The notes under the pieces are model-generated. The model saw only the letters and a list, made by a program, of their open reading frames with translations. It searched no databases and had not been told where the DNA came from. This document shows positions 387 to 61,376 of a DNA stretch of 64,000 nt, one piece after another. The stretch is taken from assembly GCF_017894385.1 (NCBI RefSeq), contig NZ_CP059560.1:5216501-5280500 (forward strand). The letters are read 5' to 3'. This DNA comes from Aromatoleum petrolei. GTDB lineage: Bacteria; Pseudomonadota; Gammaproteobacteria; Burkholderiales; Rhodocyclaceae. Each line of letters starts with the position of its first letter. Positions within the stretch are counted from its first letter, which is position 1. Position numbers and translations under genes: made by a program.

Positions 387-2618
387 CTATCTCACCACCT
401 CGCCGCCCATCACATCATTTGGACGTCCCTGGTCGGGTTGGCGGTAATCGCACACACCATCGGGAAAAATCTGCTCGAGCTGTGCCTTGTACGGCTGCAT
501 GTCCACCGGCTTGTAGACGCCACGGTCGAGCGCGGACGATACGCTTTGCAGTGCGCACTTGAAGCGGTCGCCACGGATCCCGTCCCCGGCGACCATGCGG
601 GAGTTCGCGTAGATCGGATAGACGCGCATGCACGCGCCCGTCGGGAGCTCGTTCCAGTCGCCGTCCCAGACCCGGTCGCCCTTGAACATGATCCGCCCGC
701 GAGCGTCGAAACAGCGGTCACTGGCGCTCTCCGGGCGCGCTTCCGCCCACGAAAGCTGGGGACGCGCGTGTTTCGCACGCAGCCACTGATCGATCGTGGT
801 GAAGGCCTTGGGTGTCGGATCGTAAGCCTTGTCGCTCACCCAGATCGCCTGGTTCCCGGCATCGCCCTGGGCTGCAATCATCCGGGCCCGAGCGGAAAAC
901 GATGCGGCAGTGTGATGCATGTCGAGCTCGGCTTCGAGATACAGCCGCTCGTCGATGACGGGAATATCGATGCTGCCAAGGAAAACCTGCCCCGAACGGT
1001 AGGCGGCCGCGATCGCTTCGAGGCCCCCGGCAAAGCGCGGCGCCGGGTGATCGCGGTTTCGACCCATGTTCATGTTGTGGGCGCTCCACGGTGAAAAGTC
1101 GCGCAGTTCGCTCTCGCCGCCGTCGATCAGCCAGTAGCGTTCGGGCTGCATGTCCGCGGGTGACTTCCAGCTGCCGATACTTGCGTTCAGGCGCAGGAAC
1201 TGCTCCGGACCGATCTGTTTCCGCTGCAGCGCACGGAGGCCGTACTGCACACCGACATTGTCCCACGGAATGCGTGCGTACCCCCTCGCGTCGGTGCCGA
1301 AGAAACGTTTGAGGTCCTCGAAGTAGCTCCAGCGCACCTGCTGGAAAACGTCGCGTGCCAGATGCGACTCGAAATGCGCAAACCGCGGATTCAGGACCAG
1401 CGGCGTCAGGCCCCGCCAGCCGACCACGCACTCGGTTTCGCCCTTGCGGTCGTGTACGGTTTCGCCGCGCATCATGAAGGCAACCCTGGACGCGACCTGG
1501 ATCCGCATCAGCCCGCCGGAGCTTTCATGGCGATTGCTGGCGTTGAAACCTTCTATCCAGCGCCGGTTCTCGGCCTTGCGCCAGGTGCGGTTGTCCCTGT
1601 CGGTAACGTCGAAGTAATACTCGAGCAGTTCGCAGTCGAACACTGGAATCGTCTGCGTGATCATGTCCGGATAGGAATATTGGGCGATGGCCGCATCGAT
1701 GAGGCCGGGGCGGTTCTGCGCCAGCAGATATTGCTGGATGGCGCCGCCCGAAGCGCCCACGCCCACCGTGTAAGCGGGCTCGCCGTAAAGCGCGACGAAC
1801 TGCCGTTTGACGCGCAGCGCGGTGTCCTCCGCGAGCCAGATGTCGAAGTGGTTGCGGCTGGTGGTTCCGGTCGATGCGACGACCGCGTAGCCCTGCGCGA
1901 GCTGATCGCGGCGATCGTCGAGGACGGCCTTCACGTTCGCCCTGCCCTGTCGATGACCGATTCCGACGCCTCCATAAAACTGGTAGATCAAACGACGGTT
2001 CCAACGATCGGCGGCGGGACTGTCGATGAATTCGCGCGCGCCCTTGATCGCGGCGATGAGGTAGATGAAGCGGTTGATCGTGCCTATCTCGACACGGACG
2101 ATGAAGGGCACGCGGGCGCCATTGATGGTGACCGTGTCGACCTCCTCCGACTGCCCGTTCCACCGCGCGAAGTGCTTCTCCCCGACCGGTTTGTAGAAAT
2201 ACCAGGCCTTCGTGGGCGCAAGGCAATCCTTGCTGAACGCCCGTGCCGTCGGCCTGTCCCCGGCGGCGTCAGCGGCGGAGACAACCGGTGTGCCGGTCCC
2301 CGCCGTATTGTCCGCCAGGGGCTGGCCCAAGCCTGAACTGGCGGTGTCGCAGATGAAGGGATATTGATTCGGTCCGGCGAACAAGGGTTCGCTCGGGCCG
2401 ACCTGCCCGAGCATGATCGGGAAACGGAAGGTTTCGGCCGGTCGTTCGAGGCGCGAAGGGTGCGGTCCCGCATACGGCTCGGTGGGCGCCCCGGCGTCGA
2501 ACCCTGGCGGCAAGCCGGCGACCTTCCGATGGCCAAGCTGTCCGCCCCCGTCGGACTGGCCACCAAGAGCGACGCCAACGAGGATCAGCCCCGGCCACAG
2601 CCACCTTCTTCGCTTCAT
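387..2618 (-). CDS. DUF6351 family secreted protein, alpha/beta-hydrolase-like
   Basis: A 743-residue protein. The start chosen is the ATG followed by KRRRWLWPGLILVGVALGG, which looks like a signal peptide (basic start, hydrophobic core); an upstream ATG would only add a poor Arg/Gly-rich leader. The mature part resembles the DUF6351 family, whose members are exported and have no settled function. The stretch VGVGASGGAIQQY has the G-x-S-G-G shape of a serine-hydrolase nucleophile elbow, with a His/Asp-containing NHFDIWLAED segment before it. Six or more Cys in the second half suggest disulfides after export. It stands alone, divergent from the sulfur-carrier operon. The family call is reasonably firm; hydrolase activity is inference. 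Confidence 0.75.
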   Translation of the reverse strand: MKRRRWLWPGLILVGVALGGQSDGGGQLGHRKVAGLPPGFDAGAPTEPYAGPHPSRLERPAETFRFPIMLGQVGPSEPLFAGPNQYPFICDTASSGLGQPLADNTAGTGTPVVSAADAAGDRPTARAFSKDCLAPTKAWYFYKPVGEKHFARWNGQSEEVDTVTINGARVPFIVRVEIGTINRFIYLIAAIKGAREFIDSPAADRWNRRLIYQFYGGVGIGHRQGRANVKAVLDDRRDQLAQGYAVVASTGTTSRNHFDIWLAEDTALRVKRQFVALYGEPAYTVGVGASGGAIQQYLLAQNRPGLIDAAIAQYSYPDMITQTIPVFDCELLEYYFDVTDRDNRTWRKAENRRWIEGFNASNRHESSGGLMRIQVASRVAFMMRGETVHDRKGETECVVGWRGLTPLVLNPRFAHFESHLARDVFQQVRWSYFEDLKRFFGTDARGYARIPWDNVGVQYGLRALQRKQIGPEQFLRLNASIGSWKSPADMQPERYWLIDGGESELRDFSPWSAHNMNMGRNRDHPAPRFAGGLEAIAAAYRSGQVFLGSIDIPVIDERLYLEAELDMHHTAASFSARARMIAAQGDAGNQAIWVSDKAYDPTPKAFTTIDQWLRAKHARPQLSWAEARPESASDRCFDARGRIMFKGDRVWDGDWNELPTGACMRVYPIYANSRMVAGDGIRGDRFKCALQSVSSALDRGVYKPVDMQPYKAQLEQIFPDGVCDYRQPDQGRPNDVMGGEVVR

Positions 2619-2834
2619 CTTCGATGTCCTGCCGTGCGCCCTGCCCCGTCCGGCTGAGCCGTCCATGATTCAGATATAGATCACGGGCGATTGGCCGCAA
2701 TGAACGACGACCGGTGTGCCACTCCGACCGAAATTTGCTCCGCGAGGGCGCGCGTCGCGAACTCAGGCGGCCCGATCGCATTCCAAAGTAGACGGATTTA
2801 GTCGGTTATTGCGTTCTGTAACGAGGGTCCCGCC

Positions 2835-3251
2835 ATGGCGAGCTTGCGACTGCCTCCCCCTCTGCGCGACACGATCATCGCCGCCGCGCAGACGGGCTAC
2901 CCCGATGAGGTGTGCGGAATCCTGCTGGGGCGGCAGGACGGCGAAGCCGTGACTGTGTGCGCGGTCCGTGCCGCCCGCAATGTTCACCCGGAGCGCACCG
3001 CGGATCGGTTCCTGATCGAACCGCAGGATTATCTCGATGCCGAGTACGCGGCGGCCGCCAGCGGACTGCAGGTGGTTGGCGTTTGGCATTCCCATCCCGA
3101 CCACCCGCCCCACCCTTCGGTTACGGACCGGGAATTCGCGTGGGCGGGTTGGTCCTATCCGATCGTCTCGGTCAAGGCCGGCGTGGCCACCGAGTTGCGC
3201 TCATGGCGGCTCGAGGGCCAAACGTTCGGCGAAGAGGAGGTGTTGTCATGA
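2835..3251 (+). CDS. JAMM/MPN metallopeptidase (Mec-like)
   Basis: A 138-residue single-domain Mov34/MPN (M67) protein. The full JAMM zinc site is present: Glu25 (DEVCGILLG), then His85-x-His87 and Ser95-x2-Asp98 in HSHPDHPPHPSVTD. In Mycobacterium the related Mec peptidase releases cysteine from the C-terminus of the sulfur carrier CysO; in Pseudomonas QbsD trims a carrier tail. The stop codon overlaps the next start (ATGA at 3248-3251), so translation is coupled to the carrier-rhodanese-E1 fusion, with a cysteine synthase after it. The likely job is therefore cleavage after a carrier Gly-Gly: either releasing a cysteine adduct or freeing the carrier from the fusion. A GAGGG ribosome site precedes the ATG. 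Family firm; substrate inferred from context. Confidence 0.88.
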   Translation: MASLRLPPPLRDTIIAAAQTGYPDEVCGILLGRQDGEAVTVCAVRAARNVHPERTADRFLIEPQDYLDAEYAAAASGLQVVGVWHSHPDHPPHPSVTDREFAWAGWSYPIVSVKAGVATELRSWRLEGQTFGEEEVLS

Positions 3252-4699
3252 GCCATGTCATCGTTCGCATTCCGACTCCCTTGCGCGCTTACACCGGTGG
3301 CGCAGACGAAGTCGAGGTCGACGCCGCCACGGTCGGCGACGCGCTGCAGGCTCTGGCCCATCGTCACGAAGGACTGCTGCCGCGCGTGTGCGCGGGGGAC
3401 GGATCACTGCGCCCCTTCGTGAACATCTACCTCGGATCGGACAATGTACGAGACTTGGGTGGACTCGCTGCCCCCCTGCCCCATGACGGCGCAGTGCTCG
3501 CGATCGTTCCGGCGGTAGCCGGTGGGGCCGGCGGCGCACGCGAGCGGCGGATCGCGGAACTGAGGGCGAGCATACCGGAGATCGATCCGCGCGAAGCTTT
3601 CGCCCTGCAAGCGCAAGGGGCGGCGCTGATCGACGTGCGCGAGGCGGACGAGATCGCGCAGGGCAGCCCCCGCGACGCTTTGCGCATCGGCCGCGGATTT
3701 CTCGAGCTGCGCGTGGAGGAAGCCATCCCCGATACCGAGCGGACGCTGCTCGTGCTGTGCGGCGGTGGTGTGCGCTCCCTGTTCGCCGCCGAAGGCCTGC
3801 AGCGGCTCGGTTATCGCAAGGTCGCGTCGGTGGCGGGCGGTTTCTCCCGCTGGAAGGCCGAAGGCCTGCCCTTCGAGACCCCGCGCGGCCTCGATTCGCA
3901 CGCACGCGAGCGCTATGCGCGGCATCTGGCGATGCCGGAGGTCGGGGAAGCCGGGCAGCGACGGCTGCTGGACAGCCGCGTGCTGCTGGTCGGCGCCGGA
4001 GGCCTCGGGTCTCCGGCGGCCCTGTACCTCGCCGCGGCCGGCGTCGGCACCCTCGGCATCGTCGATCACGACATCGTCGATCGCTCCAACCTGCAGCGGC
4101 AGATCCTCCACAACGACGAGCGCATCGGCCAGCCCAAGGTCGACTCCGCGCGCCGCACGCTGCAAGGCCTCAATCCCGCGGTGAAGGTCGCGACCTACCT
4201 CGAGCGCCTGAGTGCGTCCAACGTCGAGCGCATTCTCGAAGGTTACGACGTGGTGGTCGACGGCTCGGACAACTTCCCTACCCGCTACCTCGTCAACGAC
4301 GCCAGCGTGCGCCTGCAGATTCCGTGCGTGCATGGCTCGGTGTACCGCTTCGAGGGCCAGGTGACGGTATTCTGGCCGCATTACCCGGCCCGCCGCGGCC
4401 CGTGCTATCGCTGTCTCTATCCGGAACCGCCGCCCGCCGAGTTCGCGCCCTCGTGCGCCGACGCGGGCGTGCTGGGCGTGCTGCCCGGGGTCGTGGGGCT
4501 GCTCGAAGCGGTCGAGACGATCAAGCTGCTGCTGGATCTGGGCGACCCGCTGGTCGGGCGGCTGCTGCATTACGACGCCTTGCGCGCCCGATTCGACGAG
4601 TATCGGCTATCCGCAAGGCCGGATTGCGAGCTGTGCGCCGAAGGGCGTGCATTCCCCGGCTACGTCGACTACGAAGCGTTCTGCGCGACGGCGGTTTAA
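3248..4699 (+). CDS. Fusion: ThiS/MoaD-type sulfur carrier + rhodanese + MoeB/ThiF-type E1
   Basis: One 483-residue chain with three sulfur-transfer modules. Residues 1-96 are a ubiquitin-like carrier ending AIVPAVAGGAGG; the VAGG at 90-93 matches the C-terminus of CysO-type carriers, but here the di-glycine is internal. Residues about 100-212 are a rhodanese with loop CGGGVRS (Cys171 as persulfide site). Residues about 218-483 are an adenylating E1: nucleotide loop GAGGLGSP (249-256), zinc pairs Cys386/Cys389 and Cys460/Cys463, and Cys403 in SCADAGVLG where ThiF forms its acyl-disulfide link. Known relatives adenylate a carrier C-terminus and convert it to a thiocarboxylate; that needs a free Gly-Gly end, so this carrier must be cut or must work on a second carrier. 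The upstream JAMM peptidase (4-base overlap) and downstream CysM-like enzyme point to protein-bound sulfide for cysteine synthesis. Confidence 0.88.
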   Translation: MSHVIVRIPTPLRAYTGGADEVEVDAATVGDALQALAHRHEGLLPRVCAGDGSLRPFVNIYLGSDNVRDLGGLAAPLPHDGAVLAIVPAVAGGAGGARERRIAELRASIPEIDPREAFALQAQGAALIDVREADEIAQGSPRDALRIGRGFLELRVEEAIPDTERTLLVLCGGGVRSLFAAEGLQRLGYRKVASVAGGFSRWKAEGLPFETPRGLDSHARERYARHLAMPEVGEAGQRRLLDSRVLLVGAGGLGSPAALYLAAAGVGTLGIVDHDIVDRSNLQRQILHNDERIGQPKVDSARRTLQGLNPAVKVATYLERLSASNVERILEGYDVVVDGSDNFPTRYLVNDASVRLQIPCVHGSVYRFEGQVTVFWPHYPARRGPCYRCLYPEPPPAEFAPSCADAGVLGVLPGVVGLLEAVETIKLLLDLGDPLVGRLLHYDALRARFDEYRLSARPDCELCAEGRAFPGYVDYEAFCATAV

Positions 4700-4722
4700 G
4701 CGCGTCGCAAGGGAAGACGGAC

Positions 4723-5691
4723 ATGGCAGCGATCCCGATCCGCGAATCCGCCCTGCTCTCCGGCGTCGGTCACGTCCCGCTGGTCGAGATCCACGCCGTA
4801 CGTGAGCAGGCGCCGGGTTGCCGCGTGTTCGCCACGCTCGAAGCCGTCAATCCCGGCGGATCGATCAAGGACCGACCAGTCGTGCGCATGCTGATGAAGG
4901 CCCTGCAGACCGGCCGCCTCGACGCCGGCCGGCGACTGCTCGATTCGTCGTCCGGCAACGCGGGCATCTCGTACGCGCTGTACGGTGCGGCCTTGGGTGT
5001 GCCGGTTACGCTCGTCGTGCCGGGCAACGCCAGCCGCGAACGCCTCGACCGCATCCGCGCCAGCGGCGCCGAACTGATCCTCACCGATCCGCTCGAAGGC
5101 TACGACTTTGCAGTGGCCGAGGCGCGCCGCCTCGCGCGCGATCACCCCGAGCGCTACTGGTACTGCGATCAGTATTCGAATCCTGAGAACTGGCGTGCAC
5201 ATTACGACACTACCGGTCCGGAACTGCTGCGGGGCGTTATGGCGAGCACCGGCAGGCCGCCGGATGCGTTCGTTGCCGGCATCGGCACCGGCGGCACGCT
5301 CACGGGCGTCGCGCGCCGGCTGAAGGAAGCGCATCCGGCAACGGTCGTGATCGCGGCGATCCCCGACGAATTCCCCGGCATCGAGGGCCTCAAGCCGCTC
5401 GGCCATCCGGGCGACATGGTGCCGGCGATCCTCGACGAGAGCCTGATCGACCGCCGTCTGCCGGTGTGCATGGAGGATGCGATCCCGATGTGCCGGAAGC
5501 TGGCCAAGACCGGCCTGTTCGTCGGCCCGTCCGCAGGCGCGCTGGTGCATGTCGCATGCCGGGTCGCGCTCGAAGATCGCTTGCGCTGCATTGCCACGCT
5601 GCTGCCGGATACCGGCGAACGCTACGTATCGACCGGGCTCTGGGCGGGCACAGACGTACAACAGGAGACGGGAAGGACAGGGAGCCACTAA
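4723..5691 (+). CDS. PLP-dependent cysteine synthase, CysM-like
   Basis: A 322-residue fold-type II PLP enzyme. Lys49 in NPGGSIKDRP should carry the PLP; SSGNAG is the substrate-carboxylate loop, and GIGTGGTLTGVAR holds the PLP phosphate. The length fits O-acetylserine or O-phosphoserine sulfhydrylases. The gene starts 23 bases after the carrier-rhodanese-E1 fusion and is presumably cotranscribed. In Mycobacterium CysM uses thiocarboxylated CysO rather than free sulfide, with O-phosphoserine as the other substrate. The same gene company here suggests this enzyme also takes sulfur from a carrier protein. Whether it prefers O-acetyl- or O-phosphoserine cannot be told by eye. A plain free-sulfide cysteine synthase remains possible. 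Confidence 0.85.
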   Translation: MAAIPIRESALLSGVGHVPLVEIHAVREQAPGCRVFATLEAVNPGGSIKDRPVVRMLMKALQTGRLDAGRRLLDSSSGNAGISYALYGAALGVPVTLVVPGNASRERLDRIRASGAELILTDPLEGYDFAVAEARRLARDHPERYWYCDQYSNPENWRAHYDTTGPELLRGVMASTGRPPDAFVAGIGTGGTLTGVARRLKEAHPATVVIAAIPDEFPGIEGLKPLGHPGDMVPAILDESLIDRRLPVCMEDAIPMCRKLAKTGLFVGPSAGALVHVACRVALEDRLRCIATLLPDTGERYVSTGLWAGTDVQQETGRTGSH

Positions 5692-5707: not shown

Positions 5708-6367
5708 ATGGCATTGCGATTAGGCGACGACGCGCCGGACTTCACGGCGGAAACGACGCGGGGAACGATCCGGTTTCATGAGTGGATCGGGGACGGGTGG
5801 GCAATCCTGTTCTCGCATCCGAAGGACTTCACCCCTGTCTGCACCACGGAACTCGGGTATATGGCGGGACTCAAGGAGGAATTCGACAAGCGCAACACCA
5901 AGATCATCGGTCTGAGTGTGGACTGCGTCAGTGACCACGACCGCTGGTCGAAGGATATCGAGGAGACGCAGGGGCATCGCATCAATTACCCGCTGATCGG
6001 CGACCCGGACCTCAAGGTGGCCAAGCTTTACGACATGATCCACCCCAACGCCAGCGGCAGCGCTCAGGACCGAACGGCGCAGGACAACCTGACGGTGCGT
6101 TCGGTGTTCGTGATCGGGCCGGACAGGAAGATCAAGCTGATGCTCACCTACCCGATGAGTACCGGCCGCAACTTCGACGAGGTCCTGCGGGTGCTGGACT
6201 CGATCCAGCTCACCGCGAAGTACAAGGTGGCGACGCCGGTCAACTGGAAACCGGGCGAGGACGTGATAATCGTGCCGTCGGTCTCCGACGAGGAAGCAAA
6301 AACCCGCTTCCCGGACGGATGGGAGGCACCCAAGCCCTATTTGCGCATCGTTCCGCAGCCCAGATAG
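5708..6367 (+). CDS. 1-Cys peroxiredoxin (Prx6/AhpC-TSA family)
   Basis: A 219-residue peroxiredoxin reducing H2O2 and organic peroxides in the cytoplasm. The peroxidatic site reads HPKDFTPVCTTELG, and the C-terminal extension (VNWKPGEDVIIVPSVSDEE) is typical of the Prx6 group. I see no conserved resolving Cys in the second half, consistent with a 1-Cys mechanism. A strong GGAGG precedes the ATG. It follows the cysteine synthase by 16 bases, so it probably shares the sulfur-carrier transcript; a peroxidase beside thiol synthesis suggests a link to redox stress, but that is inference. Confidence 0.92.
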   Translation: MALRLGDDAPDFTAETTRGTIRFHEWIGDGWAILFSHPKDFTPVCTTELGYMAGLKEEFDKRNTKIIGLSVDCVSDHDRWSKDIEETQGHRINYPLIGDPDLKVAKLYDMIHPNASGSAQDRTAQDNLTVRSVFVIGPDRKIKLMLTYPMSTGRNFDEVLRVLDSIQLTAKYKVATPVNWKPGEDVIIVPSVSDEEAKTRFPDGWEAPKPYLRIVPQPR

Positions 6368-7044: not shown

Positions 7045-7665
7045 GTGTCGAGATCCTTTCTGCGCCGACTGGCTTCGGTCGCCGCCGTCGCGGTTGCGCT
7101 GAGCACCGCGGGCTGCGGTTATAACGATTTCCAGCGGCTTGACGAGCAAAGCAAGGCAGCCTGGGCCGAGGTGCTGAACCAGTACCAGCGGCGGGCCGAC
7201 CTTATTCCCAACCTTGTCGCCACCGTCAAGGGTGAGGCGAACTTCGAGCAGGAAACGCTCACGAAGGTGATCGAAGCGCGGGCGAAGGCGACTTCGATCC
7301 AAGTCACCCCCGAAATGCTTGCCGACCCGCAGGCGATGGAACGCTTCCAGCAAGCACAGGGCCAGCTGGGCAGCGCCCTGTCGCGCCTGCTCGTCGTCGC
7401 CGAAAACTACCCGAACCTGAAGGCCAACCAGGCCTTCCAGGACCTGCGGGTCCAGCTCGAAGGCACCGAGAACCGCATCACCGTCGCGCGCAACGGTTAC
7501 ATCAAGGCCATCCAGGAATACAACGTCCTCGCTCGCAGCTTTCCGACCAATCTGACGGCGATGGTCTTCAGCTACGCTCCCAAGGCAGGGTTCACCGTCG
7601 CGAACGAGCAGGCGATTTCGAGCCCTCCCGCAGTCGATTTCAGTGGCAGTGCGCCCAAGCGTTGA
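7045..7665 (+). CDS. lemA: LemA family lipoprotein
   Basis: A 206-residue protein starting with GTG (GGGAG upstream). The N-terminus is a signal ending in a lipobox-like LSTAGC, so it is probably a lipoprotein. The following helical region is typical LemA: YNDFQRLDEQSKAAWAEVLNQYQRRADLIPNLV and the GTENRITVARNGYI segment. LemA proteins are membrane-anchored helical bundles of unclear role, very often followed by a TPM-domain gene, as here. Size and gene order match the family. Confidence 0.92.
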   Translation: MSRSFLRRLASVAAVAVALSTAGCGYNDFQRLDEQSKAAWAEVLNQYQRRADLIPNLVATVKGEANFEQETLTKVIEARAKATSIQVTPEMLADPQAMERFQQAQGQLGSALSRLLVVAENYPNLKANQAFQDLRVQLEGTENRITVARNGYIKAIQEYNVLARSFPTNLTAMVFSYAPKAGFTVANEQAISSPPAVDFSGSAPKR

Positions 7666-7687
7666 AGCGCCCACTCCCCTGCCCTTG

Positions 7688-8602
7688 ATGCCGGCCCTCC
7701 TCCCTTCCATGCGCGCGATCGGATGCGCCCTGCGCCTCGCCTTGTGCATGCTCGCGCTGGGGTTCTGGGCGGGCGCTGCCGGCGCGCAGGAATTGATCCC
7801 CGTTCCGAAGCTGACGGCGCGCGTCATCGACCAGACGGGAACACTGTCGTCCGCCGAACGGCAAGCGCTCGAAGACAAGCTTGGCCGATTCGAAACCGAG
7901 CGCGGCAGCCAGATTGTCGTCCTGATCGTGGCGACGACCGCGCCCGAGGATATCGCCGCCTTCGCCAATCGCGTGGCGGCCGAATGGAGGATCGGCCGAC
8001 GCGATATCGGTGACGGCCTCCTGCTGGTAGTCGCCAAGGATGACCGGCGCGTGCGCATCGAGGTCGCCCGCGCCCTCGAAGGAGCGGTTCCCGACCTGGC
8101 AGCCTTCCACATCATCGACCGCGCCATCACGCCGGCCTTCCGCCAAGGTCAGTTCGCCGCCGGTATCGAGGCCGGTGTCGAGGCCTTGTTCGCACGCATC
8201 CGCGGCGAGAACCTGGCCCTGCCGGAACCGGACGGACGCGACTCGGGCGGATCGGGATCGTTTCAGGACATCGGAGTCCTGCTCATGTTCGGCGTGCCCA
8301 TAGTCGGCGGCATGCTCGTCGCGGTGCTTGGCCGCAAGCTCGGCGCATTGGCAACCGGGGGCGTCTTCGGCTTCCTCGCCAAATTTCTGCTCGGCAGCCT
8401 CGTGCTGGGCATCATCGTCGGTGTGCTCGCCATCATCTTCGTCTTCGTGCTCGGCACCGGCGGGGGCGGACGCGGTGGCCGCGGCGGTCCCGGCGGACCG
8501 ATCATCTGGGGCGGCAGAGGTCGTGGCGGCTTCGGGGGCGGGGGCTTCGGTTCGGGCGGAGGCGGCAGCTTTGGCGGCGGAGGCGCGTCGGGTCGATGGT
8601 AA
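7688..8602 (+). CDS. TPM-domain membrane protein with Gly-rich tail (YgcG-like)
   Basis: About 304 residues, 22 bases after lemA. An N-terminal signal peptide (to GAAGAQE) leads into a TPM domain (TARVIDQTGTLSSAERQALEDKL...VVLIVATTAPEDIAAFANRVAAEWRIGRRDIGDGLLLVVAKDDRRVRIEVA), then two hydrophobic segments and a long Gly-rich tail ending GGGGASGRW. TPM proteins are exported or anchored; some relatives have been reported to hydrolyse phosphate esters, but the role here is unknown. Start choice is uncertain: ATG 7688 and ATG 7709 both lack a clear ribosome site. Confidence 0.88.
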   Translation: MPALLPSMRAIGCALRLALCMLALGFWAGAAGAQELIPVPKLTARVIDQTGTLSSAERQALEDKLGRFETERGSQIVVLIVATTAPEDIAAFANRVAAEWRIGRRDIGDGLLLVVAKDDRRVRIEVARALEGAVPDLAAFHIIDRAITPAFRQGQFAAGIEAGVEALFARIRGENLALPEPDGRDSGGSGSFQDIGVLLMFGVPIVGGMLVAVLGRKLGALATGGVFGFLAKFLLGSLVLGIIVGVLAIIFVFVLGTGGGGRGGRGGPGGPIIWGGRGRGGFGGGGFGSGGGGSFGGGGASGRW

Positions 8603-55668: not shown

Positions 55669-56871
55669 TCAGGACCTGAATTCCACAACCGTCGGGCGCC
55701 GCACCTCCCAGTCGGCGATCCAGTCCGCGATTTGATCGTGCGGCAATGCCTTGGCGATGAACCAGCCTTGCGCCAGCTCGCAGCCGCTGTTGCGAAGGAA
55801 GTCCCAGTCCTCCCTGTCTTCCACCCCTTCCGCAACCGTTTTCATGCCGAGCTGGCGTGCCATCCCGAGGCTCGCCTCCAGGATCGCGCGCAGCGAGGCG
55901 TCGCGCCATGCACCATGAACAAAGCCGCGGTCGATTTTCAGTTCGCTGAACGGGATGTCGCGCAATTGCGCAAGCGACGAGTGTCCGGTGCCAAAATCAT
56001 CAATCGACAATCCGACGCGTTTGAGCCGCAGGCGCGCCAGCACCTCCAGCGGCGTCAGCGGATCCTTCATCAGGCGGCTTTCCGTAACCTCCAGCAATAG
56101 GCCGCTTGCCGCGATCCCGGCCTCGCCCAGCGCGCGCTCGACGAAATCCGGGAAGTCCAGCGACACCAGGTTATCCATCGACACGTTGACCGCCACCTGA
56201 AGCGCGTAGCCGTCATCGCCCCACGCGCGCGCATGACGCAAGGCCGTGCGCAGCACGGAACGCGTGAGTTCGTTGATCAGTCCGCTCTCTTCGGCGAGGG
56301 GAATGAACTGGTCGGGGAGAATCAATCCGTCCTGCGGGTGCCGCCAACGCACCAGGGTCTCGAATCCGGCGACGGCGCCCGATGCAAACTCGACCTTGGG
56401 CTGGTAGTAATTGACCAGTTCGCCATCGGCAATCGCGCACCGCAAGCGCTCTGCAGAGTACGTCTTGCGCTCCTTGTGCCCTTGTGCAGGGCCCTGGGCC
56501 ACGTCACCGGCAAGAATCTGCTTCAGTGTCTCGATCGACACCGGCTTGGTCAGCGCGCCCAACACCTTGAGATTGTGCGCCCGGGCAAGTTTCGCAGCGG
56601 TTTGCACGACCCGCTCGTCTTCGCCGCTGACCAGCACCAGCCCACCCTCATAGCCCACACGCACCAGATGGCGCACGAACTCGACTCCGTCCATCTCCGG
56701 CATCTGCAAGTCGCAGAAAATCAGCTCGGGTTTGGCTCCACCCCCTTCAAGCACCGACAAGGCCTCCTGAGCACTCGCGCAAGCTTGCACGCGCTCGAAA
56801 CCCATGCGACCGAGCTGATGGATGAGGAGCTTGCGCACGAAGGGCTCGTCATCGATCACGAGTATGTTCAT
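55669..56871 (-). CDS. Response regulator with EAL domain (probable c-di-GMP phosphodiesterase)
   Basis: A 400-residue protein. Residues 1-120: receiver with Asp in LIFCDLQMPEMDG. Residues about 145-390: EAL domain where the name motif reads ETLVRW; the other catalytic residues are present (NVSMDN, LEVTES, IDDFGTGHSS, ELKIDRGFV, VAEGVED), so it is probably active in degrading c-di-GMP. It overlaps the hybrid kinase gene (ATGA), so the kinase is the likely partner. Confidence 0.93.
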   Translation of the reverse strand: MNILVIDDEPFVRKLLIHQLGRMGFERVQACASAQEALSVLEGGGAKPELIFCDLQMPEMDGVEFVRHLVRVGYEGGLVLVSGEDERVVQTAAKLARAHNLKVLGALTKPVSIETLKQILAGDVAQGPAQGHKERKTYSAERLRCAIADGELVNYYQPKVEFASGAVAGFETLVRWRHPQDGLILPDQFIPLAEESGLINELTRSVLRTALRHARAWGDDGYALQVAVNVSMDNLVSLDFPDFVERALGEAGIAASGLLLEVTESRLMKDPLTPLEVLARLRLKRVGLSIDDFGTGHSSLAQLRDIPFSELKIDRGFVHGAWRDASLRAILEASLGMARQLGMKTVAEGVEDREDWDFLRNSGCELAQGWFIAKALPHDQIADWIADWEVRRPTVVEFRS

Positions 56872-59800
56872 CCCGAGCCCCCGATCCGGGTCGCTTCATT
56901 CAACTGTCTGTCGAGTGCGGCTTGGACCGCGCCAACCACCTCGTCAAAGCGGCTCATTGCCTGCTCCAGTTCCCCCTGGTCCGCCGCCTGCACGGCCGCC
57001 TCGATGCGGTTGCACAACTCTCCGAGCTCGAGAGCACCCACCGTGCGCGAGGAAGACTTCAACTTGTGCGCACTACCGGCCACTGCACCCATGTCACCGG
57101 CGACGAACGTCCGCCGCACATCCGCGGTCAGGAGCGCGACCGAAGCGCGATAGTCACACAGGAATTCGTGAACCACCGCGGGATCATCACCCACCAGCCC
57201 GGTGAGGACCGACACGTTCAGGATCGGCAGTTCGGCCGCAGAGGCAGCCACCACGGTCGCGCACCCCTGCGGAGGCACCGTCCCCGGCACCGGCATTTCC
57301 TGCAAGGGCAGCCAGGTCGCGAGTTTCGCATCGAGCGCATCTAGCCTGACCGGTTTGGTAAGGTACGCGTCCATCCCTGCATCCAGTGCCCGGCGCGCTT
57401 CCCCCTGCAACACGTTTGCCGTGAGCGCGACGATGAGTGTGCGTGCCGTGGGCCCCTCCGCCTCGCGAACCGCTTTCGTCAGGCTGTATCCGTCCATGTT
57501 CGGCATGTGGAGGTCGGTCAGTATCAATGCGTAATTCCCCACTTGCCACATCCGCAGCGCCTCGGCCCCGTCGCTGGCAACCTCCGCCGCGTAACCGAGC
57601 AGCCGCAGTTGTTCGAGGATCACCTTCCTGTTGATCTCATCATCGTCCGCGACGAGGATCAGCCGCCCCTGCTTCCGCGCGTCTTCCACACTCGGTGCCG
57701 TTTTGCCACGCTGAATTGCGCCTTCCGTGAATCCGGCTTGGAAGATTTCAGGCGATGCCCGCCCCGCCGCGACCGCCACTGCCCGCAGCAAGGACTGGCG
57801 ACGCAGCACATTGCCGTCGACCACTACAGTGTCAGGCGCAGCAATACGCGGCCGACGGCGCCTGCCATGAGTGATCCTGACGCGAGCGACAGCGTGCGCA
57901 GCCACACCTTCCGGACGGCCCGCCGGCGCCCTTTCGTTGCCGAACCCGATCAGGACCACCGGCGGCTCCAGGTCGGCGAGTAACGCCCCTGTCGCGTCCT
58001 CGTTGTCGGTCCGGAACACCCGCGCGCCGGCGTACTCCAGGTACGCGCACAAGTCGTCGATATCGAATTCGGCCCCCTCCGCCAGAACGCAACTCACGCC
58101 GCCGAGCTCGGTCAACGCCCGCGCAGGCTGTTCGGCGGAAACCACGAACGGAATCGTCACGGTAAACGTCGCACCCTCACCCGGTTCGCTGGAAACCTCG
58201 ATCTGGCCTCCCATCATGTCCACCAAGCGACGGCAAATCGCCAATCCCAGCCCAGTGCCGCCATAACGGCGGGTGGTCGATGTCTCAGCCTGTGTGAAAG
58301 GATGGAACAACTCCTTGATCTGTGCCGGATCGATACCGATTCCGTTGTCCGCAATCGTAAAGGCGAGTCTCGTGGGCGCAGTGCCTGCAGCGACCACGCG
58401 GACGGAGACGCGGCCGCGGATTTGCGGACGGCCCGCAGAAAACTTGATCGCATTTCCCACGAGGTTGTACAGGATCTGCCGCAGACGGATTTCGTCACCC
58501 TGAAGACGACCGGGTATGTCCGGGGCGACGAACACAGACAGGTCGACATTGCGACGCGCCGCCACGGGAAGCAGCGAACCCGCGAGGCCCTCGACCAGCT
58601 CTTCGATCGACACCGGCCCGATATCGAGTTCCATCCGTCCTGCCTCGATCTTCGAGAAATCGAGGATATCGTCGATGATGCGCAGCAGCGTGTTCGACGA
58701 CTCGCGAACGGTCGCCACCAGATCCGCCTGATGTTCGGACAAGTGAGTGCGCGCCAGCACCTCGACCAATCCGAGCACCCCGTTCATGGGAGTTCGAATC
58801 TCATGGCTCATCGCGGCCAGGAAGGCCGATTTCGCCACGTTTGCCTGCTCGGCGTCCTCACGCGCCTGCGTCAGTGCCTCGATCAAGGCCTTGCGCTCGC
58901 CGATGTCCCGAAGTGTGCCGATGAAGAACGGTTCGTCATGCACGCGGTACTCGGCCACGCTGAGTTCCAGCACGATGGGGTGGCCCAGCTTGTGCAGCCC
59001 CTCGACCACCCGCGTCGTGCCGATGATGTACCTCTGACCGCTCGCCAGGTAGCGCGAGAGGTAATCGTCGTGATGCTCGCGGTGCGGTGACGGCATCAGC
59101 ATCGACACGTTCCGGCCGATGACCTCCTCGCTGCGATAGCCGAACACGGTCTCGACCGCCGGATTGGCTGCCTGCACGATCCCACGCGAATTGATCGTAA
59201 CGACGCACTCGAGCAGGTTGTCCACGACCGCTCGAATTTCTTCCTTCTTTGCGTTGAGGGCATTCAACGCCGCCTCGCGCTCACCGACGCGACGGCTCAA
59301 TTCTGCGTTCAGATCGCGCAGATGCTGGGCGCGCTCGTGCCGCGTCGTGCAGTCGTGCGCCGTCACGAGCATCAGTCCGTCCGGCAGCGGCAAGGCCTTC
59401 CACTCCAGCCAGCGCCATGTACCGTCCTTGCAGCGATAACGATTCTCGAAGCCCACCGTCGTTTGCCCGTGGGCAATGCGATCCACTTCGGCGAGCGTTG
59501 CCTCGACATCGTCCGGATGCACGAAATCGAGGAAGGGGCGCGACAAGAACTCCTCGTCGCTCCATCCGAGGGTCCGACCGAATGCCGGGTTCACTCGCCT
59601 GAAATAACCGTCCACGCCTGCGAGGCCGAGCAGGTCGAGCGACAAGTCGAAAATGCGGTCACGTTCATCCTCAGCGGCAAGCCGTGCATCCAGCGCGCGC
59701 CGGAGATCGGCAGTCCGTTGCGTTACCTCGGCCTCGATGGCCGCGGTATGGCCGGCATTGCTCAAGCCGACATAGGCCACGAGCAATGCCGCCAACACGG

Positions 59801-61376
59801 AAAATATCTGATAGATCTGCTCCTCTATCCGGTAACCGGAATAGCTCGTAGCATCTTCTGGCGCCATTTCCAGTCTCAGCGTCCGCCCGCCGAGTCCGAT
59901 TTCCCTGCGCGCCAGCGGTGTTGCATCCGCAGGCATTTCATCGAGCAAGGTCTGCACGGGATCGCCAGTCGTCACATCGGAAATGCGGAAACCGATGTTC
60001 CGTGCGCGTGCCACTGCTGCCAAGGGCTCAAACAGCTGCTCGACGTCGAACACGCCGACCACATAGCCGAGCAGGTCACGAGTTCCAACCCGCCCGGGGC
60101 TGACCCATGATCCACGCACAATCCCATGCACAGGCTGGAACACGAGCAGCGATTGCCGCTCGGTGCGAAGCAGCGGCGTGGTTCGGACAAGGTGTGGCGC
60201 GCCGCTCTCCCGTGCGTGCCGCATCTCCACGCGCCGATGCGTATCGGATGCATGGTCGAGCCCGAGAATGTCGCGCCCAGCCTCCTGCGGCTCGCTAAAC
60301 AGAATCGGGAAATACTCGGCTCGAAGGGCGGGCCTCTTACGACCACCATTGACACCGAGCTCAAACACATGGAAATCCCGGACACCTTCGGCTCGAACCT
60401 CACGCTCGAATCCTTCGCGCTCCCCGCTCAACACTCGCGGCGCCCAATCGATCGACATCAGCGCCGGATGCCGGGTGATCCAGCGCGTGAAGATCGCGAA
60501 CTCCTCCCGGGTGAATTGCTCGCTGGCGTTGATAAAGCGCTCGACACCCTCGAGCGGCGCGATGACGCCGGGTACCGGAAGCAAGCCGTTCTCGAACACC
60601 TGGTCCATCGCTCCGGAGATCTCGATGTTCTTTCGGTAGCTGGCCAGCCGGTCGACGCCAAAACTGCCCGCCGAGAGCAGCACCACCACGACGAGCAGCA
60701 GAATGGAAATTCTCGCCTTGCCCCCCATGCGCGCCCACTCGGACCCAGCGCCCGGCCAGACGAGGAGCACAAGTGGCGTGAACAACAGCACGCCGAGCGT
60801 GTCGCCGGCCCACCATGCCAGCCAGACGCCTGCCGCCTCCGCCACCGATATCCGTCCAAAGGTCAGCAGAGTGGCCACAGCGATGCTAGACGCCACCAGG
60901 CATGCAGCCGGCCCCACAAGCAGGAGAAATCGCACCAGATCGCGAGCGCGCGCAACATCGATCGACATACGCAGGAAACGTCTGGCCAGCCGGCACGCGA
61001 ACAATGCCTGTGCCGTCGCCCCCGTGGCGATCAGCGCTGCCACCACCGCGCCAACGGGCGTTCGGTCGAGCAGGAAGACGACGATGAACGCGCCCAGCCA
61101 GACACCGGGCCAGCAACGCCGCCCCCAGCCGATCAGACAGCCCAGTGCGACGCCCGCCGCTGGCCAAACCGGAGATGCATAGCCGGCAGAGGACGTCAGG
61201 ACGCCGGCCAGCAGACCCGCAAGGATGTACATCGCGGCGAGCGCTGCGATGCGCGAAAAGAAAGCGGCAGGCCCGATTGAAACGGCCATTTGCACGCCAG
61301 CCGCAGGCTTTGCCGCTAGCGAAGCAGGACCAGGGTGATCGAGCTCGGCCCGCAGCCGGGGATCGGAATCGGCCAT
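56868..61376 (-). CDS. Hybrid sensor kinase: MASE1, CHASE, two PAS, HK, REC, HPt
   Basis: A 1502-residue multi-domain kinase. An N-terminal MASE1 membrane region, then a CHASE-type periplasmic domain (EFAIFTRWITRHPALMSIDWAPRVL) and another helix, two PAS domains (GYFRRVNPAFGRTLGWSDEEFL and GIVQAANPAVETVFGYRSEEVIG), HisKA with MSHEIRTPMNGVLG, an ATPase domain, a degenerate receiver-like segment, a receiver with Asp near 1288 (LILTDLHMPNMDG), and an HPt with His near 1437 (AHKLKSSSRTVGALELG). Signal passes His-Asp-His, probably to the overlapping REC-EAL protein, so an outside cue sets c-di-GMP. Confidence 0.93.
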   Translation of the reverse strand: MADSDPRLRAELDHPGPASLAAKPAAGVQMAVSIGPAAFFSRIAALAAMYILAGLLAGVLTSSAGYASPVWPAAGVALGCLIGWGRRCWPGVWLGAFIVVFLLDRTPVGAVVAALIATGATAQALFACRLARRFLRMSIDVARARDLVRFLLLVGPAACLVASSIAVATLLTFGRISVAEAAGVWLAWWAGDTLGVLLFTPLVLLVWPGAGSEWARMGGKARISILLLVVVVLLSAGSFGVDRLASYRKNIEISGAMDQVFENGLLPVPGVIAPLEGVERFINASEQFTREEFAIFTRWITRHPALMSIDWAPRVLSGEREGFEREVRAEGVRDFHVFELGVNGGRKRPALRAEYFPILFSEPQEAGRDILGLDHASDTHRRVEMRHARESGAPHLVRTTPLLRTERQSLLVFQPVHGIVRGSWVSPGRVGTRDLLGYVVGVFDVEQLFEPLAAVARARNIGFRISDVTTGDPVQTLLDEMPADATPLARREIGLGGRTLRLEMAPEDATSYSGYRIEEQIYQIFSVLAALLVAYVGLSNAGHTAAIEAEVTQRTADLRRALDARLAAEDERDRIFDLSLDLLGLAGVDGYFRRVNPAFGRTLGWSDEEFLSRPFLDFVHPDDVEATLAEVDRIAHGQTTVGFENRYRCKDGTWRWLEWKALPLPDGLMLVTAHDCTTRHERAQHLRDLNAELSRRVGEREAALNALNAKKEEIRAVVDNLLECVVTINSRGIVQAANPAVETVFGYRSEEVIGRNVSMLMPSPHREHHDDYLSRYLASGQRYIIGTTRVVEGLHKLGHPIVLELSVAEYRVHDEPFFIGTLRDIGERKALIEALTQAREDAEQANVAKSAFLAAMSHEIRTPMNGVLGLVEVLARTHLSEHQADLVATVRESSNTLLRIIDDILDFSKIEAGRMELDIGPVSIEELVEGLAGSLLPVAARRNVDLSVFVAPDIPGRLQGDEIRLRQILYNLVGNAIKFSAGRPQIRGRVSVRVVAAGTAPTRLAFTIADNGIGIDPAQIKELFHPFTQAETSTTRRYGGTGLGLAICRRLVDMMGGQIEVSSEPGEGATFTVTIPFVVSAEQPARALTELGGVSCVLAEGAEFDIDDLCAYLEYAGARVFRTDNEDATGALLADLEPPVVLIGFGNERAPAGRPEGVAAHAVARVRITHGRRRRPRIAAPDTVVVDGNVLRRQSLLRAVAVAAGRASPEIFQAGFTEGAIQRGKTAPSVEDARKQGRLILVADDDEINRKVILEQLRLLGYAAEVASDGAEALRMWQVGNYALILTDLHMPNMDGYSLTKAVREAEGPTARTLIVALTANVLQGEARRALDAGMDAYLTKPVRLDALDAKLATWLPLQEMPVPGTVPPQGCATVVAASAAELPILNVSVLTGLVGDDPAVVHEFLCDYRASVALLTADVRRTFVAGDMGAVAGSAHKLKSSSRTVGALELGELCNRIEAAVQAADQGELEQAMSRFDEVVGAVQAALDRQLNEATRIGGSG

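What the first reader, a model, noticed from the sequence alone, without database searches (positions are those of the whole stretch)
2835..5691. CysO/Mec/CysM-like cysteine route rebuilt around a carrier-rhodanese-E1 fusion
A JAMM peptidase, a 483-residue chain joining a CysO-like carrier (C-terminal VAGG now internal at 90-93), a rhodanese (Cys171) and an E1 (Cys403), and a CysM-like enzyme lie in one tightly coupled operon. In Mycobacterium these parts are separate proteins. Here the carrier's Gly-Gly is buried in the chain, so chemistry as known cannot start unless the chain is cut; the coupled JAMM peptidase is the obvious candidate. That would make cleavage an activation step, not only a release step.
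Basis: partly seen in the sequence, partly recalled or inferred. Interest (0 to 1): 0.8.

Follow-up and report, generated by a model that had tools for sequence, protein, structure and literature searches.

The report
Carrier fused to its activating enzyme
A bacterium makes a sulfur-carrying protein glued to the enzyme that must charge it, next to a gene for a protein-cutting enzyme that probably frees the carrier first; the cutting principle is known, but this particular fusion looks like a new variant.

Summary
A JAMM peptidase (2835-3251), a 483-residue CysO-type carrier/rhodanese/E1 fusion (3248-4699) and a cysteine-synthase-like enzyme (4723-5691) form one tight operon in an Aromatoleum genome. 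The fusion recurs in Pseudomonadota, Acidobacteriota and Planctomycetota and alternates with a split form in which carrier and rhodanese-E1 are neighbouring, often overlapping genes. In 121 fused proteins Pro88 and Ala-Gly-Gly 91-93 never vary, while the residues just after vary in letter and length; residues 91-95 are the only ones under pLDDT 50 in the AlphaFold model. Standalone carriers of this family mostly run past Gly-Gly too (100 of 119), unlike other ThiS-family carriers of the class (3 of 28). A JAMM gene lies beside every fused gene examined (24 rows, 23 distinct; split 19 of 26). So these carriers look like precursors, and cutting after Gly93 is probably the first step, with the JAMM enzyme the likely cutter. 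No cleavage was shown. JAMM activation of fused carriers was predicted in 2006 and shown for carrier-MoaE fusions, so the principle is not new; a carrier fused to its own E1 is the new variant. Cysteine as product is likely, not proven; the genome also has a second CysO-like carrier and ordinary CysK and CysM.

The parts
2835..3251 (+). JAMM/MPN+ metallopeptidase, 138 aa, predicted active (E25, H85, S86, H87, S95, D98)
   Evidence: Prok-JAB 90.6 bits; E25, H85, H87, S95 and D98 identical in 43 of 43 aligned operon JAMMs, position 86 Ser (27) or Thr (16)
3248..3251 (+). ATGA overlap: start of the fusion gene and stop of the JAMM gene
   Evidence: the same -4 spacing in 25 of 39 related rows measured
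3248..3526 (+). CysO/MoaD-type sulfur-carrier domain, residues 1-93, ending PAVAGG
   Evidence: ThiS Pfam 36.5 bits; PDB 4n6e_B 1.2e-13 and 3dwg_C 9e-12
3524..3529 (+). Predicted cleavage site, codons Gly93|Ala94
   Evidence: A91 G92 G93 invariant in 121 of 121; pLDDT under 50 only at 91-95
3527..3547 (+). Short variable linker, residues 94-100; no ATG, GTG or TTG in frame
   Evidence: no invariant column at 94-110; 4 to 19 residues between G93 and R101 among 121; codons read
3608..3862 (+). Rhodanese domain (residues 121-205), Cys171
   Evidence: Pfam 43.8 bits; Cys171 121 of 121
3914..4630 (+). E1/MoeB/ThiF adenylating domain (residues 223-461), Cys403, Cys386/389/460/463
   Evidence: Pfam 272.4 bits; ThiF (1zud) and MoeB (1jw9) among the top Foldseek hits; all five cysteines invariant in 121
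4723..5691 (+). Cysteine-synthase-like PLP enzyme, 322 aa, of an operon-specific type
   Evidence: PALP 197.5 bits; LDSSSGNAGI, GYD and FPGIEGLKPLG each conserved in at least 90% of 44 operon rows

Best explanation
The operon is a CysO-type protein-thiocarboxylate route in which the carrier is made as a precursor. Proposed steps. (1) The JAMM peptidase cuts the 483-residue chain after Gly93, giving a free carrier ending PAVAGG and a free rhodanese-E1 (inferred). (2) The E1 domain adenylates Gly93 with ATP, and sulfur from the rhodanese Cys171 persulfide turns it into a thiocarboxylate (inferred from family chemistry). (3) The cysteine-synthase-like PLP enzyme uses that sulfur on an activated serine, giving a carrier-cysteine adduct (inferred from M. 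tuberculosis CysO/CysM). (4) The same JAMM enzyme releases cysteine and regenerates the carrier, as Mec does, so the 1:1 carrier-to-E1 ratio fixed by the fusion is enough for a recycled carrier. The fusion is the extreme case of a tail that most standalone carriers of this family already bear; it arises when the overlap between carrier and rhodanese-E1 genes goes into one frame. Shown here: anatomy, conservation, recurrence, gene linkage, predicted flexibility of the site. Not shown: any reaction.
For: Gly-Gly is kept although internal: of the 93 carrier positions, 7 are invariant in 121 fused proteins and 4 of these are P88, A91, G92, G93; none of 94-110 is invariant. All 23 fused loci printed (22 distinct; the window apart) keep AGG. 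The only residues with pLDDT under 50 in the model (mean 89.5, pTM 0.63) are 91-95; 12 more lie at 50-70. Standalone carriers of the family: 100 of 119 run 2-54 residues past Gly-Gly and 23 of 25 split loci at least one, against 3 of 28 ThiS-family controls of the class (Fisher 2.5e-13) and 0 of 7 other carriers read in this genome. JAMM adjacent to 24 of 24 fused rows, and in all 5 fused genomes of an even class sample of 274. Catalytic JAMM residues 43 of 43. The window's fusion has no in-frame ATG/GTG/TTG from Ala94 up to Val130 (read), so a free whole rhodanese-E1 is not made by re-initiation there. CysM-like neighbour in 44 of 50 carrier-bearing rows, 0 of 47 rows scored carrier-less. JAMM-dependent activation of a linear carrier-enzyme fusion is established in vivo elsewhere.
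Against: No experiment. A JAMM is also needed for the Mec-like release step, so its presence does not prove that it makes the first cut: two loci with tailless separate carriers (L116, L119) keep a JAMM, and five tailed split loci (L037, L052, L062, L074, L075) have none next door, only lower-scoring JAMM-family proteins elsewhere. With L116 and L119 added, tailed split loci are 23 of 27. The fused-versus-split JAMM contrast (Fisher 0.010) does not survive control for relatedness: 3 independent pairs, p 0.5-1; the carrier/JAMM and carrier/CysM links have 5 pairs each and also fall short. The tail survey used a tailed query and listed 120 of 147 matches, so it leans to that lineage. The next helix starts at 95, and CsRpn11 cut a folded DHFR fusion only when a short linker was added (PMC6043591, passages), so access may be hindered. 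The PLP enzyme is below all cysteine-synthase cut-offs listed, while the genome has canonical CysM and CysK above theirs; M. tuberculosis CysM is not its nearest PDB match.
Confidence: 0.64

Rival explanations
1. The fused carrier is not the substrate. A separate carrier in the genome, above all the CysO-like L008 protein, is activated by this rhodanese-E1; the fused domain only docks or regulates.
For: L008 ends at Gly-Gly, matches the fused carrier (34% over 90 residues, phmmer 1e-12) and needs no cut. Many rhodanese-E1 relatives have no carrier gene seen beside them (47 of 97 rows so scored). Iyer et al. note ThiF proteins with a fused Ub-like domain beside a standalone ThiS and infer another role for the fused domain (PMC1779556).
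Against: A docking domain would not need an invariant Ala-Gly-Gly with a variable stretch right after it. Split relatives encode the same carrier as its own gene at the same place. L008 sits beside a Sortilin-Vps10/BNR-repeat protein, not in this operon.
Confidence: 0.15
2. The chain is cut after Gly93, but by another protease; the operon JAMM serves only as the Mec-type enzyme that frees cysteine from the carrier.
For: Tailless carriers with a JAMM exist (L116, L119), and tailed carriers without an adjacent JAMM exist (L037, L052, L062, L074, L075). The MoaX protease was unidentified in 2015 (PMC4326299, abstract and Discussion).
Against: Other JAMM enzymes cut linear carrier fusions after Gly-Gly, and this is the only PF14464 match at E 0.001 in the genome.
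Confidence: 0.1
3. The module delivers sulfur to something other than cysteine (for example molybdopterin, as the database name MoeB suggests), and the PLP enzyme makes another product.
For: Databases name the protein MoeB; it passes two NCBIfam MoeB cut-offs (NF006444, and PRK05690 with 298.4 against 266) though not TIGR02355. The PLP enzyme is under every NCBIfam cysteine-synthase cut-off listed and has its own signature. Four fused rows lack it nearby (L032, L055, L056, L103). Canonical CysM and CysK are present elsewhere.
Against: 44 of 50 carrier-bearing rows have the PLP enzyme nearby, 0 of 47 scored carrier-less do. The best carrier matches in the PDB are of the CysO type (that label is partly recall). 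A separate MoeB (L011, 323.2 against 266 bits) and a MoaD-like carrier (L002) exist.
Confidence: 0.25
4. Free carrier and free E1 come from the ribosome (frameshift at the join or internal initiation), not from proteolysis.
For: In split relatives the two genes often overlap with a frame change; some fused genes have a GTG or ATG within about ten codons of the join (L029, L030, L041, L063, L101, L102).
Against: No in-frame start near the join in the window's gene; Met between G93 and R101 in only 5 of 121. A frameshift product would still carry a tail past Gly-Gly.
Confidence: 0.04

Closest known systems
CysO / CysM / Mec / MoeZR cysteine route of Mycobacterium tuberculosis (PMC3227635, abstract and passages)
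   Same: carrier of the CysO type, E1 with a rhodanese, cysteine-synthase-fold enzyme, JAMM peptidase (that Mec is a JAMM enzyme is recall); same proposed order of reactions
   Different: carrier, CysM and Mec are separate proteins there; the rhodanese is at the C-terminus of the E1; here carrier, rhodanese and E1 are one chain; the PLP enzyme is not closest to that CysM
Iyer et al. 2006 operon class 4c: ThiS/MoaD, E1-rhodanese, JAB, cysteine synthase (PMC1779556, passages)
   Same: same four activities in one operon; the text also suggests that JAB could cut fused ThiS/MoaD to free a C-terminus
   Different: in the passages and table parts seen, the carrier of this class is a separate gene and a carrier-rhodanese-E1 chain is not mentioned (figures and the rest of the text not seen)
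MoaX, and MoaD-MoaE or SAMP1-MoaE fusions (PMC4326299, PMC8832034, PMC4443979)
   Same: internal Gly-Gly in a linear fusion; cutting after it is needed for activity; JAMM does it for DRJAMM and HvJAMM1
   Different: the fused partner there is the sulfur acceptor MoaE; here it is the activating enzyme itself with its rhodanese, in a cysteine-type operon
NF006444 / PRK08762 rhodanese-MoeB proteins
   Same: residues 98-482 match above the curated cut-off (620.7 against 449)
   Different: that model (387 positions) matches only the part after the carrier
CsRpn11 maturation of the archaeal ubiquitin precursor (PMC6043591, passages)
   Same: JAMM-family enzyme trims a tail after Gly-Gly as maturation
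   Different: protein-tagging system, short tail of nine residues, no E1 fused

Membership tests
JAMM/MPN+ active metallopeptidase | E ... H-S/T-H-x7-S-x2-D motif | tested here: met
   E25, H85, S86, H87, S95, D98; E, H, H, S and D in 43 of 43 operon JAMMs
JAMM/MPN+ active metallopeptidase | cuts after a carrier's C-terminal Gly-Gly | not testable with these tools
   needs purified protein
Desampylase, NCBIfam NF041370 | curated cut-off 130 bits | tested here: not met
   93.2 bits
CysO/MoaD/ThiS sulfur carriers | ThiS domain over the Pfam cut-off, with conserved Gly-Gly | tested here: met
   36.5 against 22.5 bits; Gly-Gly 121 of 121
CysO/MoaD/ThiS sulfur carriers | Gly-Gly at the free C-terminus as encoded | tested here: not met
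   internal here; 100 of 119 standalone relatives also have a tail
SAMP1 (NF041918) and MoaD family (TIGR01687) | curated cut-offs 60 and 49.5 bits | tested here: not met
   49.8 and 31 bits
Rhodanese-MoeB NF006444 | curated cut-off 449 bits | tested here: met
   620.7 bits over residues 98-482
MoeB subfamily NF004281 / PRK05690 | curated cut-off 266 bits | tested here: met
   298.4 bits
MoeB, TIGR02355 equivalog | curated cut-off 376.55 bits | tested here: not met
   224.4 bits; the genome's separate MoeB, L011, also misses it with 275.1
Cysteine synthase (TIGR01136 cysKM; TIGR01138 cysM; TIGR01139 cysK) | curated cut-offs 344.15, 394.2, 350.95 bits | tested here: not met
   262.7, 249.5, 236.6 bits; the genome's own CysM (L015) and CysK (L016) pass theirs
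Fold-type II PLP enzyme of the cysteine-synthase superfamily | PALP domain and the SIKDR lysine motif | tested here: met
   197.5 bits; NPGGSIKDRPV in at least 90% of 44 operon rows
CysO cysteine pathway | PLP enzyme uses carrier thiocarboxylate, not sulfide | not testable with these tools
   genetic linkage only: 44 of 50 against 0 of 47 rows
Iyer 2006 class 4c operon | ThiS/MoaD, E1+rhodanese, JAB and cysteine synthase together | tested here: met
   definition from PMC1779556

The most novel reading that the evidence does not exclude
The fusion is a true zymogen of an E1: uncut, the tethered carrier blocks or misplaces its own activation; the short linker makes JAMM cutting slow or signal-dependent, so the cysteine-type route is switched on by a single proteolytic step that also fixes one carrier per E1. 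Bacteria have entered or left this state repeatedly (7 changes on the best tree, 3 forced by starred branches).
Probability: 0.2. Interest if true: 0.72.

Novelty: new variant of a known kind. Interest (0 to 1): 0.52.

Why it matters
Ubiquitin is made as a precursor and trimmed before use. This operon family suggests that a bacterial sulfur-metabolism route commonly does the same, with tails from a residue or two up to a whole fused E1, and that one JAMM enzyme may both mature the carrier and free the product. It gives a compact system (four activities in three genes) in which precursor maturation, activation and release can be tested, and it corrects the common annotation of such proteins as plain MoeB.

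Tried and rejected
Considered and dropped. (a) Frame error or chance: rejected by the recurrence of the fusion. (b) Gly96 as the end: not conserved. (c) The 1-Cys peroxiredoxin downstream as a pathway part: directly downstream in the seven Aromatoleum/Azoarcus loci, but found in only three further loci (L031 far off; L064 just upstream of the operon; L072 just downstream on the other strand) of those scanned. The first try at this used a wrong reading frame and was redone. (d) Other recurring neighbours: every group recurring in five or more lineages was one of the four activities or a reading frame lying over them (read by eye). (e) JAMM adjacency as proof of cutting: does not survive control for relatedness. 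(f) No direct alignment with M. tuberculosis CysM active-site residues was made; its sequence was not at hand. (g) The third protein search and the second structure job were not used. (h) Literature: the listings (titles and starts of abstracts) show no paper on a carrier-rhodanese-E1 fusion; subscription papers are mostly not held; 'ThiS' matched the word 'this', and one search returned mainly unrelated 'MEC-like' papers. PMC12800425 was opened for passages only and gave nothing further. (i) Four minus-strand carrier loci were first read on the wrong strand and redone.

Rows dropped or relabelled. Of the 79 loci, one search left out those with partial E1 matches (L091, L094, L095, L097, L098); L127 and L128 were not entered, nor L099 (the window itself, entered as win_P0002). 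L120 was left out of the tree; L058, L070, L072 and L076 were given no state (contig edges or truncated loci); L074 and L075 were relabelled split by hand (the script's distance rule had scored them carrier-less). L116 stayed scored as carrier-less although one search shows a separate carrier upstream of its JAMM, so one of the 3 JAMM-bearing rows among those 47 is really split. The G-handle loci (L100-L126) hold about 1.5 kb of flank, less at contig ends, so only direct neighbours could be seen there. In one search, L153 was set aside as a mis-framed match (29 read, 28 used); whether any of the 28 controls has a JAMM was not checked. In one search, 1 of 120 proteins (P0228) had no recognisable motif and was left out. 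In one search, 7 of the 8 other ThiS matches were read; the weak ninth (22.4 bits) was not. The tree is a quick LG+G4 tree with warnings about long branches.
Full report
WHAT IS THERE. Three genes on the plus strand overlap or nearly abut: a 138-residue JAMM peptidase (2835-3251), a 483-residue protein (3248-4699; its ATG overlaps the JAMM stop) and a 322-residue PLP enzyme (4723-5691). Pfam finds Prok-JAB in the first; ThiS (6-93), Rhodanese (121-205) and ThiF (223-461) in the second; PALP in the third, all over their cut-offs. The carrier's nearest solved structures are 4n6e chain B (ThiS/MoaD family protein, 1.2e-13) and 3dwg chain C (9e-12), the latter from an entry whose chain A is cysteine synthase B; that both are CysO or CysO-like is my recall. 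The genome (5.4 Mb, one contig) is an Aromatoleum: the closest protein is 96% identical and listed under A. evansii.

HOW COMMON. Among 79 loci in named genomes, 19 have the fusion in one frame and 25 have the same carrier as a separate gene before a rhodanese-E1 gene, in 9 of the 25 with a four-base ATGA/GTGA overlap and in others with a deeper one; the rest have no carrier seen beside the E1 or are truncated. In an even sample of 274 genomes of the class, 5 have the fusion, all with a close JAMM (E 8.2e-39 or better) overlapping or within 11 bases of it; 24 genomes have a rhodanese-E1 match without the carrier (a 25th, G169, is broken over two contigs), and two of them (G155, G266) have a close JAMM beside it. 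These two turn out to have a tailless carrier gene on the other side of the JAMM.

EVOLUTION. On a quick tree of the rhodanese-E1 part (101 rows), the fused state needs at least 7 changes on the best tree and 3 if only well-supported branches are believed. So fused and split forms have interchanged more than once. Split carriers of the family are already tailed: 23 of 25 split loci (23 of 27 with L116 and L119) and 100 of 119 standalone proteins with a readable motif, out of 120 listed of 147 matches to a tailed query, continue past Gly-Gly. ThiS-family proteins drawn from 36 genomes of the class mostly do not: 25 of 28 end at Gly-Gly, as do 7 of 7 other carriers read in this genome. The contrast is large (Fisher 2.5e-13) but the rows are related, so the p-value is only descriptive.

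IS THE BURIED GLY-GLY STILL USED? In 121 fused proteins, 7 of the first 93 positions never vary: G52, R55, N59, P88, A91, G92, G93. From 94 to 110 none is invariant, and 4 to 19 residues lie between G93 and R101. A carrier tail kept intact up to an exact point, followed by a stretch free to vary, is what one expects of a tail that ends there in its working form. The 120 relatives are the best-scoring ones; the 23 fused loci printed, some quite distant (L041, L063), also keep AGG. The AlphaFold model made from 63 aligned sequences has a mean pLDDT of 89.5 and pTM of 0.63; its only residues under 50 are 91-95, and the next helix starts at 95. Foldseek places the E1 with ThiF, MoeB and Uba4.

WHO CUTS? 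A free carboxylate on the terminal glycine is required for adenylation by E1 enzymes (established for MoaD/MoeB and ThiS/ThiF). The JAMM has all catalytic residues, as do all 43 aligned operon JAMMs, and is the only PF14464 match in the genome. It lies beside 24 of 24 fused rows (23 distinct) and 19 of 26 split rows. That difference (p 0.010) loses its weight once relatedness is considered: only three independent pairs exist. Split loci without an adjacent JAMM include both tailless (L035, L071) and tailed ones (L037, L052, L062, L074, L075); apart from L071, whose genome has only a marginal 27.5-bit match, their genomes hold lower-scoring JAMM-family proteins elsewhere. Because a Mec-type enzyme is needed for product release anyway, the gene's presence does not alone prove the first cut.

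PRECEDENT. Iyer et al. 2006 list the operon class (4c) and suggest that JAB may cut fused ThiS/MoaD to free a C-terminus (PMC1779556, passages). A SAMP1-MoaE fusion is inactive for DMSO respiration unless HvJAMM1 is present, and cleavage in cells was not detected without the Gly-Gly (PMC4443979, passages and one section). DRJAMM cuts MoaD-MoaE (PMC8832034, abstract and introduction). MoaX is cut between Gly82 and Ser83 and needs it (PMC4326299, abstract and Discussion). CsRpn11 trims its ubiquitin precursor; it cut a lactalbumin fusion whether or not the partner was stabilised, but a folded DHFR fusion only when a short linker was added (PMC6043591, passages). So the activation principle is known; the partner being the carrier's own E1 is what differs. 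None of the nine paper searches listed such a fusion.

IS IT A CYSTEINE ROUTE? The PLP enzyme is nearby in 44 of 50 carrier-bearing rows and in 0 of 47 rows scored carrier-less, so the module hangs together, though independent pairs are too few for a test. It has its own signature (LDSSSGNAGI, GYD, FPGIEGLKPLG) and is under every NCBIfam cysteine-synthase cut-off listed. The genome's own CysM (L015, 461.5 against 394.2 bits) and CysK (L016, 452.8 against 350.95) pass theirs, so the organism does not depend on this route for cysteine in any obvious way. M. tuberculosis CysM is not the enzyme's nearest solved relative. Cysteine, or another sulfur amino acid made on the carrier, is the best guess.

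RIVALS. The strongest against the fused carrier is that a separate carrier is the substrate: L008, at genome position 3141617-3141868, is 34% identical over 90 residues and ends at Gly-Gly. Against it stand the constraint on the internal Gly-Gly and the split relatives. The most open point is the product: the fusion passes two MoeB models, but a separate MoeB exists (L011). Others are another protease and ribosomal separation; see the rival list.

VERDICT. Observation confirmed; interpretation partly supported: probable, with good indirect evidence, not novel in principle. A new variant of a known kind.

Noticed in passing
L008 (own genome 3141617-3141868, minus strand): A standalone CysO-like carrier ending ALSGG beside a protein with weak Sortilin-Vps10/BNR-repeat matches; its activating enzyme is unknown and could be this rhodanese-E1.
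   Followed up: partly
L007 (own genome 4188899-4189096, minus strand): A ThiS-family carrier at the C-terminus of an aldehyde ferredoxin oxidoreductase (AFOR_C 306.7 bits), the fusion that Iyer et al. report for Azoarcus; it needs no cut because it ends at Gly-Gly.
   Followed up: partly
5708-6367: A 1-Cys peroxiredoxin starts 16 bases after the PLP enzyme's stop; same place in the seven Aromatoleum/Azoarcus loci; outside them a relative touches the operon only in L064 (upstream) and L072 (downstream, other strand).
   Followed up: yes
L074, L075: Planctomycete relatives have two rhodanese domains before the E1.
   Followed up: no
L039, L059: Planctomycetota loci with a close JAMM directly before a rhodanese-E1 but no carrier recognised nearby.
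   Followed up: partly
387-2666, minus strand: A 759-residue DUF6351 tannase-like protein, divergent from the operon.
   Followed up: no
7045-8602: LemA and TPM-domain genes, overlapping as reading frames.
   Followed up: no
56868-61376, minus strand: A 1502-residue hybrid sensor kinase (MASE1, CHASE, several PAS, HisKA, receiver, Hpt) followed by a receiver-EAL protein at 55669-56871 with overlapping ends.
   Followed up: no
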